From positions 1 through 50,831 of the forward strand of contig JAIRWM010000118.1 in assembly GCA_031268975.1 (NCBI GenBank): DNA of 50,831 bases, read 5' to 3'. The notes beneath the pieces are model-generated. The model did not search any database, was not told where the DNA came from, and saw only the letters and a list, made by a program, of their open reading frames with translations. The DNA is from Treponema sp. GTDB lineage: Bacteria > Spirochaetota > Spirochaetia > Treponematales > Breznakiellaceae. Shown piece after piece: positions 1 to 385 of the stretch. Within the stretch, counting starts at the first letter, position 1. Each line of letters starts with the position of its first letter. The position numbers and the translations under genes are program-made.

Positions 1-8
1 GTTCTCTC

Positions 9-83
9 TTACGATGACTCCTCTACTATAGGATAGGATAGGATAGGATAGGATAGGATAGGATAGGATAGGATAGGATCCAT
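9..83 (-). CDS. Start of a leftward phase-variable gene, presently out of frame
   Basis: On the minus strand an ATG at 83-81 is preceded, nine nucleotides away, by a clean Shine-Dalgarno AAGGAG (99-94), so this looks like a genuine translation start. The start codon is followed at once by GATCC and nine TATCC units, encoding M-D-P and then I-L-S-Y-P repeats. In the frame present here translation ends at TAA (11-9) after 24 residues. Of the other two frames, one hits TAG immediately after the repeat and the other stays open to the window edge (Y-S-R-G-V-I-V-R-E-N). By arithmetic, losing one unit or gaining two would join the start to that open frame. The body of the gene lies outside the window, so its product is unknown. 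Confidence 0.6.
   Translation of the reverse strand: MDPILSYPILSYPILSYPIVEESS
31..79. repeat. Pentanucleotide tandem repeat (GGATA, 9.8 copies)
   Basis: Nine perfect GGATA units (31-75) plus GGAT (76-79); on the minus strand TATCC. The unit length is not a multiple of three, and the tract lies directly after a start codon with a good ribosome binding site. That is the arrangement of contingency loci that switch by slipped-strand mispairing. Confidence 0.95.
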
Positions 84-279
84 GGTTTCGTTCTCCTTAT
101 GAAAAAGCGTTTCCCGTATCCGCTTTACACGGATGTCCCATGATAGCACAGCCCGTGAACACACGCAACCTGTTATCGCCAAAAAATACGCTATTTTATA
201 CAATTCCCTCCTTATTTCACAATAATTCGCGTCTTTTCGCGTAATTCCCGGACACCGCCTACGCAAGCAAACCCGACCC

Positions 280-360: not shown

Positions 361-385
361 GGGGGCAGTGGCGGTGAAGCAAAAG
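361..385 (+). repeat. 25-bp direct repeat, left copy (relic of cyclase gene start)
   Basis: Matches 1054-1078 in 24 of 25 positions. The single difference (368 versus 1061) turns the cyclase ATG into GTG. After position 385 the similarity stops. The right copy holds the start codon and first codons of the cyclase gene, so this copy looks like a duplicated gene start left behind when the toxin-antitoxin pair was acquired. Confidence 0.85.

What the first reader, a model, noticed from the sequence alone, without database searches (positions are those of the whole stretch)
9..99. Contingency locus: pentanucleotide repeat right at a start codon, currently off
Seen: AAGGAG, nine bases, ATG, GATCC, then nine TATCC units; the present frame ends 24 codons in. 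One of the three downstream frames stays open to the window edge, and arithmetic shows that 8 or 11 units would connect to it, while 9 (as here) or 10 give early stops. Known: such repeats in other bacteria switch surface or restriction genes by slippage. The repeat would also form an I-L-S-Y-P tract at the protein start. The gene beyond the edge is unknown.
Basis: partly seen in the sequence, partly recalled or inferred. Interest (0 to 1): 0.7.

Follow-up and report, generated by a model that had tools for sequence, protein, structure and literature searches.

The report
Pentanucleotide repeat switch at gene start
Right after the start codon of a gene that runs off the end of this contig sits a short DNA stutter (nine copies of TATCC) that can gain or lose copies and so switch the gene on or off; sister genes in the same genome and family carry the same kind of switch in front of surface lipoproteins and a sugar transferase.

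Summary
On the minus strand: AAGGAG (98-93), nine bases, ATG (83-81), GATCC, nine perfect TATCC units (75-31), then 30 nt to the contig edge. The 52-bp perfect period-5 run is far beyond chance (best of 60 first-order Markov resamplings: 18 bp). With nine units the frame stops after 24 codons; 8 or 11 units reach the only frame still open at the edge. That frame is only 10 codons long, so its openness alone proves nothing, and the gene body was not found.

The contingency reading is nevertheless well supported by analogues. The same genome has a contig end with AAAGGAG-ATG-8 nt-(AACCAAC)16, whose exact 107-nt overlap leads into a contig with a PF04488 glycosyltransferase in one frame. Another contig end reads AGGAGG-ATG-leader-(GTTCTCC)6. 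In 16 internal family loci, (GTTCTCC)n sits between a Shine-Dalgarno/ATG/leader and a signal peptide: 5 in frame, 11 out, close to one third.

Best explanation: a slipped-strand translational on/off switch of a surface or envelope gene, out of phase in this assembly. New member of a known kind (Opa-like anatomy). The family-wide repertoire, including CT arrays abutting sigma-54-like promoters, is the more interesting result.

The parts
140..168 (-). weak sigma-70-like promoter candidate (TTGCGT, 17 nt, TATCAT with TG one base before it)
   Evidence: read by eye from the sequence; 8 of 12 consensus matches, below the scan threshold; inference only
93..98 (-). Shine-Dalgarno sequence AAGGAG, nine bases before ATG
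81..83 (-). ATG start codon of the putative gene (M D P ...)
76..80 (-). [quoted passage not shown]
31..75 (-). nine perfect TATCC units (the whole perfect period-5 run is 28-79); encodes I-L-S-Y-P repeats in every frame
1..30 (-). post-array stretch; frame YSRGVIVREN open to the contig edge (reached with 8 or 11 units); the current frame stops at TAA, the third at TAG

Best explanation
The repeat is a translational phase-variation (contingency) switch. Slipped-strand mispairing during replication adds or removes TATCC units just after the start codon. With 8, 11, 14 ... units the ribosome reads through into the gene beyond the contig edge; with 9 (this assembly) or 10 it meets an early stop. 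The gene most likely encodes a cell-surface or envelope protein: a signal-peptide or lipoprotein gene like those behind the (GTTCTCC)n and poly-C tracts, or an envelope-glycan enzyme like the glycosyltransferase behind (AACCAAC)n in the same genome. Shown: the anatomy, the frame arithmetic and the analogous loci. Inferred: that a gene continues past the edge, its product class, and that the unit number varies in the population.
For: Anatomy and frame arithmetic. Own genome: C121 minus-strand end reads AAAGGAG-AATTTT-ATG-CATAACTT-(AACCAAC)16 and overlaps the start of C47 exactly over 107 nt; C47 continues into LIPKRIHYCW..., PF04488 glycosyltransferase, E 1.6e-15; with C121's array length the frame is off. 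C12 end: AGGAGG-ATG-MKASGTQRPIHDSMRS-(GTTCTCC)6. C124: AAGGAG-ATG-MKAFRHFVYRTEKSTQ-C12-lipoprotein signal peptide, off. C103: AAGGAG-ATG-leader-C21-LVAASSC lipoprotein, off. Family: (GTTCTCC)3+ in 16 of 200 genomes, control 0. Of 27 arrays read, 16 are internal and have an SD start, a leader and a following ORF of at least 190 aa with a signal-peptide-like segment; 5 are in frame, 11 out; 7 arrays lie at contig ends, as expected if such genes break assemblies. Closely related G020 genes carry 7, 9 and 11 units between near-identical flanks, so array length changes over short evolutionary distance.
Against: Only 30 nt beyond the array are held, so no gene body is seen. No homologue of this locus was found in 200 genomes of the family. 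No second allele of this array is held. TATCC/GGATA arrays in other bacteria are often intergenic.
Confidence: 0.8

Rival explanations
1. The array is an intergenic microsatellite that happens to sit behind a start-like sequence, or drives only a 24-codon peptide; no gene follows.
For: No gene body seen; TATCC/GGATA arrays elsewhere are often intergenic; post-array frame only 10 codons.
Against: AAGGAG-N9-ATG directly before the array has a chance of about 0.001; several sister loci in the same genome have this anatomy with real genes behind them.
Confidence: 0.12
2. The working strand is the plus strand: GGATA units act as repeated ribosome-binding or 5'-UTR sequence for a gene on the right, as in GGATA arrays directly before lipoprotein start codons in Candidatus Endomicrobiellum agilis.
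For: Endomicrobiellum loci (L061, L063, L089) have (GGATA)nGGTATG before lipoprotein starts; plus strand here reads GGATAGGATCCATGG.
Against: Plus-strand ORFs after the array are 6, 14, 30 and 34 codons (read; the last two), and the next plus-strand gene starts at 1061.
Confidence: 0.04
3. The repeat tract at the contig end is an assembly artefact.
For: Contig ends are error-prone; poly-G or poly-C ends in C31 and C50 of this assembly look artificial.
Against: The array lies 27 nt inside the end with unique flanks on both sides and no mismatch; assembly breaks at genuine arrays are common here (7 of 27 heptamer arrays at contig ends).
Confidence: 0.04

Closest known systems
Neisseria opa genes: (CTCTT)n in the signal-sequence-coding 5' end (PMC13183285)
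   Same: pentanucleotide repeat near the 5' end of a coding region; frame set by copy number; several loci in mixed phase per genome (for the heptamer relatives here)
   Different: unit TATCC placed 5 nt after ATG; gene product unknown; no sequence relation tested or expected; other organism group
(AACCAAC)n glycosyltransferase locus of the same genome (C121/C47)
   Same: A-rich SD ending in AAGGAG, ATG, leader of 5-8 nt, non-triplet array, out of phase
   Different: heptanucleotide unit, known downstream gene (PF04488)
(GTTCTCC)n lipoprotein loci of the same bacterial family
   Same: SD-ATG-leader-array, then in 16 internal loci a signal peptide; on and off states; assemblies break there
   Different: heptanucleotide unit, usually longer leader (5-31 codons)
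Homopolymer-controlled phase variation in Treponema pallidum (named from memory; SSR-mediated repertoire mentioned in PMC11868660)
   Same: spirochaete surface genes under SSR control
   Different: poly-G tracts, mostly in promoters; not tested here

Membership tests
SSR contingency locus (translational, Opa-type) | long perfect short-unit tandem repeat beyond chance | tested here: met
   52-bp perfect run against at most 18 bp in 60 resamplings
SSR contingency locus (translational, Opa-type) | unit length not a multiple of three, so slippage shifts the frame | tested here: met
   5-nt unit; n = 8, 11 against 9, 10 arithmetic checked
SSR contingency locus (translational, Opa-type) | array inside the 5' end of a translated frame (SD and start codon before it) | tested here: met
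   AAGGAG-N9-ATG-GATCC-array; chance about 0.001; translation itself not measured
SSR contingency locus (translational, Opa-type) | a gene body in one of the frames behind the array | not testable with these tools
   contig ends 30 nt beyond the array; no overlapping contig
SSR contingency locus (translational, Opa-type) | repeat number varies between cells or strains | not testable with these tools
   no reads and no second strain held; sister loci in G020 differ (7, 9, 11 units)
(GTTCTCC)n lipoprotein switch group of this bacterial family | same repeat unit | tested here: not met
   unit is TATCC
(GTTCTCC)n lipoprotein switch group of this bacterial family | signal peptide directly behind the array | not testable with these tools
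   only YSRGVIVREN is visible

The most novel reading that the evidence does not exclude
The locus is one of a large, so far undescribed repertoire of repeat-length switches in a family of (by inference termite-gut) spirochaetes. It combines translational switches of several units (TATCC, GTTCTCC, AACCAAC, poly-C) with (CT)n arrays placed immediately downstream of sigma-54-like -24/-12 promoters of lipoprotein and transporter genes, so that surface composition is varied at both transcriptional and translational levels in a non-pathogenic symbiont.
Probability: 0.55. Interest if true: 0.65.

Novelty: new member of a known kind. Interest (0 to 1): 0.5.

Why it matters
Repeat-based phase variation is mostly studied in pathogens facing immune systems. 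Here a spirochaete family that is probably symbiotic carries a dense set of such switches in front of surface genes, and short-read assemblies often break exactly at them, so these genes are easily missed. It gives a concrete, testable set of loci for asking what selects for surface switching outside pathogenesis (phage, protist hosts or gut competition).

Tried and rejected
Linking C108 to another contig: no shared 14-mer end; C12's GGAGAAC/GTTCTCC end was considered because C108 starts GTTCTC, but the overlap is 6 nt and C108's plus strand carries no signal peptide, so dropped. Homology of the leader region with C12 (shared GCTATCATGG and TTTCATAAGG): local alignment not above shuffles, dropped. 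Synteny: genes upstream of the neighbouring cyclase in 11 relatives are not conserved, so they do not reveal the missing gene. Family-wide DNA and degenerate-pattern searches for the flank or for YSRGVIVREN found only self. The degenerate ATAGG array in relative G019 is intergenic. Rfam found only a tRNA in the window. Plasmid search: no match. Literature searches for phase variation in termite treponemes found nothing relevant in the held library.

Full report
WHAT IS THERE. The window is one complete contig (C108 of 213) of a 2.78-Mb draft genome. On its minus strand, just inside the left edge, stands AAGGAG, nine bases, ATG (83-81), GATCC, nine exact TATCC units (75-31) and 30 further bases. 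TRF reports it as the only period-5 array of the window. The perfect period-5 run of 52 bp compares with at most 18 bp in 60 first-order Markov resamplings. AAGGAG-N5..10-ATG occurs four times in 50.8 kb on both strands, so its position directly before the array is not a likely accident (about 0.001, my arithmetic). The last fact is weak by itself: ten codons stay open by chance in most random frames.

THE GENE BEYOND THE EDGE was not found. No other contig shares the last 14 bases with up to one mismatch. The flank has no homologue in 200 genomes of the family, a degenerate pattern for the visible frame hits only itself, and the neighbourhood of the adjacent cyclase is not conserved. TATCCx4 is unique to this locus in the genome and among 98 relatives.

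WHY A SWITCH IS STILL THE BEST READING. I read stretches of 100 further contigs of the same genome (1.06 Mb in all with the window) and found loci of the same plan. C121 (minus strand, contig end) reads AAAGGAG-AATTTT-ATG-CATAACTT-(AACCAAC)16 and overlaps C47 exactly over 107 nt; C47 leads into a PF04488 glycosyltransferase in one frame; with C121's array length the frame is off. The join is inferred: 102 of the 107 nt are repeat. C12 ends AGGAGG-ATG-16-codon leader-(GTTCTCC)6. C124 has AAGGAG-ATG-MKAFRHFVYRTEKSTQ-C12-lipoprotein signal peptide, off. C103 has AAGGAG-ATG-leader-C21-lipoprotein signal peptide, off. C111 has C13 before the signal peptide of a PF00691 (OmpA) protein; with the ATG at GAGGGATG I count it in frame (sequence; count by hand).

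THE FAMILY. (GTTCTCC)3+ occurs in 16 of 200 genomes of the family, control 0. Of 27 such arrays read, 7 lie at contig ends, 16 are internal with an SD start, a leader and a following ORF of at least 190 aa with a signal-peptide-like segment, and 4 have no such gene. Of the 16, 5 are in frame and 11 out, close to one third (states depend on my choice of start codon). Three related genes of G020 have 7, 9 and 11 units between very similar flanks, so copy number changes over short times. This is the pattern of translational contingency loci. The well-studied analogue is Neisseria opa, whose CTCTT repeats lie in the signal-sequence region and set the frame (PMC13183285).

MECHANISM. Slipped-strand mispairing changes the unit number; each step shifts the frame by two; one state in three reads through. 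Shown: anatomy, frame arithmetic, sister loci. Inferred: the gene beyond the edge, its surface or envelope nature, and slippage at this locus.

LIMITS. No reads, no second strain. That the genome is a termite-gut spirochaete is inference: a single-contig relative, G063, has 4,059,867 bp, the length I remember for Treponema primitia ZAS-2; this was not tested.

SIDE RESULT. TGGCACGN4TTGCT, a sigma-54 -24/-12 consensus, followed directly by CT repeats occurs in 42 of 200 family genomes, with 0 for the reversed control. In the 655 kb of this genome sampled by then, the only two CT arrays of six or more units are both at such sites and the only two such sites both carry CT arrays. The genes downstream, where one is seen, are mostly lipoproteins; one is an ABC-transporter-like ATPase. 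The genome encodes sigma-54 (PF04552, E 5.3e-53). I found no description of this arrangement in the held library.

Noticed in passing
G000:C1:11035-11092, C23:11567-11614, C175:12876 on, C202:36-59; also L212-L227: Sigma-54-like promoters (TGGCACGN4TTGCT) followed at once by (CT)5-25 arrays, upstream mostly of lipoprotein genes (one ABC-transporter-like ATPase); 42 of 200 family genomes, reversed control 0; own genome has rpoN. Possible transcription-level repeat switch or rheostat.
   Followed up: partly
L142:6785-6826 (G000:C12) and L169-L176, L232-L249: Family of (GTTCTCC)n switches between start codon/leader and lipoprotein signal peptides, mixed in- and out-of-frame states, often at contig ends.
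   Followed up: yes
L285:6-118 (G000:C121) and L254:1-102 (G000:C47): (AACCAAC)n array directly after ATG of a PF04488 glycosyltransferase; the two contigs overlap exactly by 107 nt.
   Followed up: yes
L288:6080-6091, L272:368-388, L276:5472-5484, L120:9747-9807, L114:194-203, L116:2925-2935: Poly-C/poly-G tracts near the 5' ends of secreted-protein genes or inside genes (a sugar-binding protein in L116), several out of frame; leader MKAFRHF(L/V)YRT(D/E) shared by C50 and C124. Some contig-end poly-G may be sequencing artefact.
   Followed up: partly
window 361-385 and 1054-1078: 25-bp near-identical direct repeat (GGGGGCA(G/A)TGGCGGTGAAGCAAAAG), matching the start of the cyclase gene, flanks a DUF5615 (PIN-like)/DUF433 toxin-antitoxin-like pair at 391-1002 minus; suggests the pair was inserted with duplication of the cyclase start.
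   Followed up: partly
window 220-254: Palindromic intergenic element AATTCGCGTCTTTTCGCGTAATT with relatives in four other genomes of the family (L108-L112), probably a dispersed intergenic repeat.
   Followed up: no
L061, L063, L089: Candidatus Endomicrobiellum agilis TA26: (GGATA)n arrays lie directly at the ribosome-binding position before start codons of genes that look like lipoproteins, same unit as here on the other strand.
   Followed up: partly
L130 start (G000:C150): Contig begins inside a long 7-residue protein repeat (TIIISML), another assembly break at a tandem repeat.
   Followed up: no
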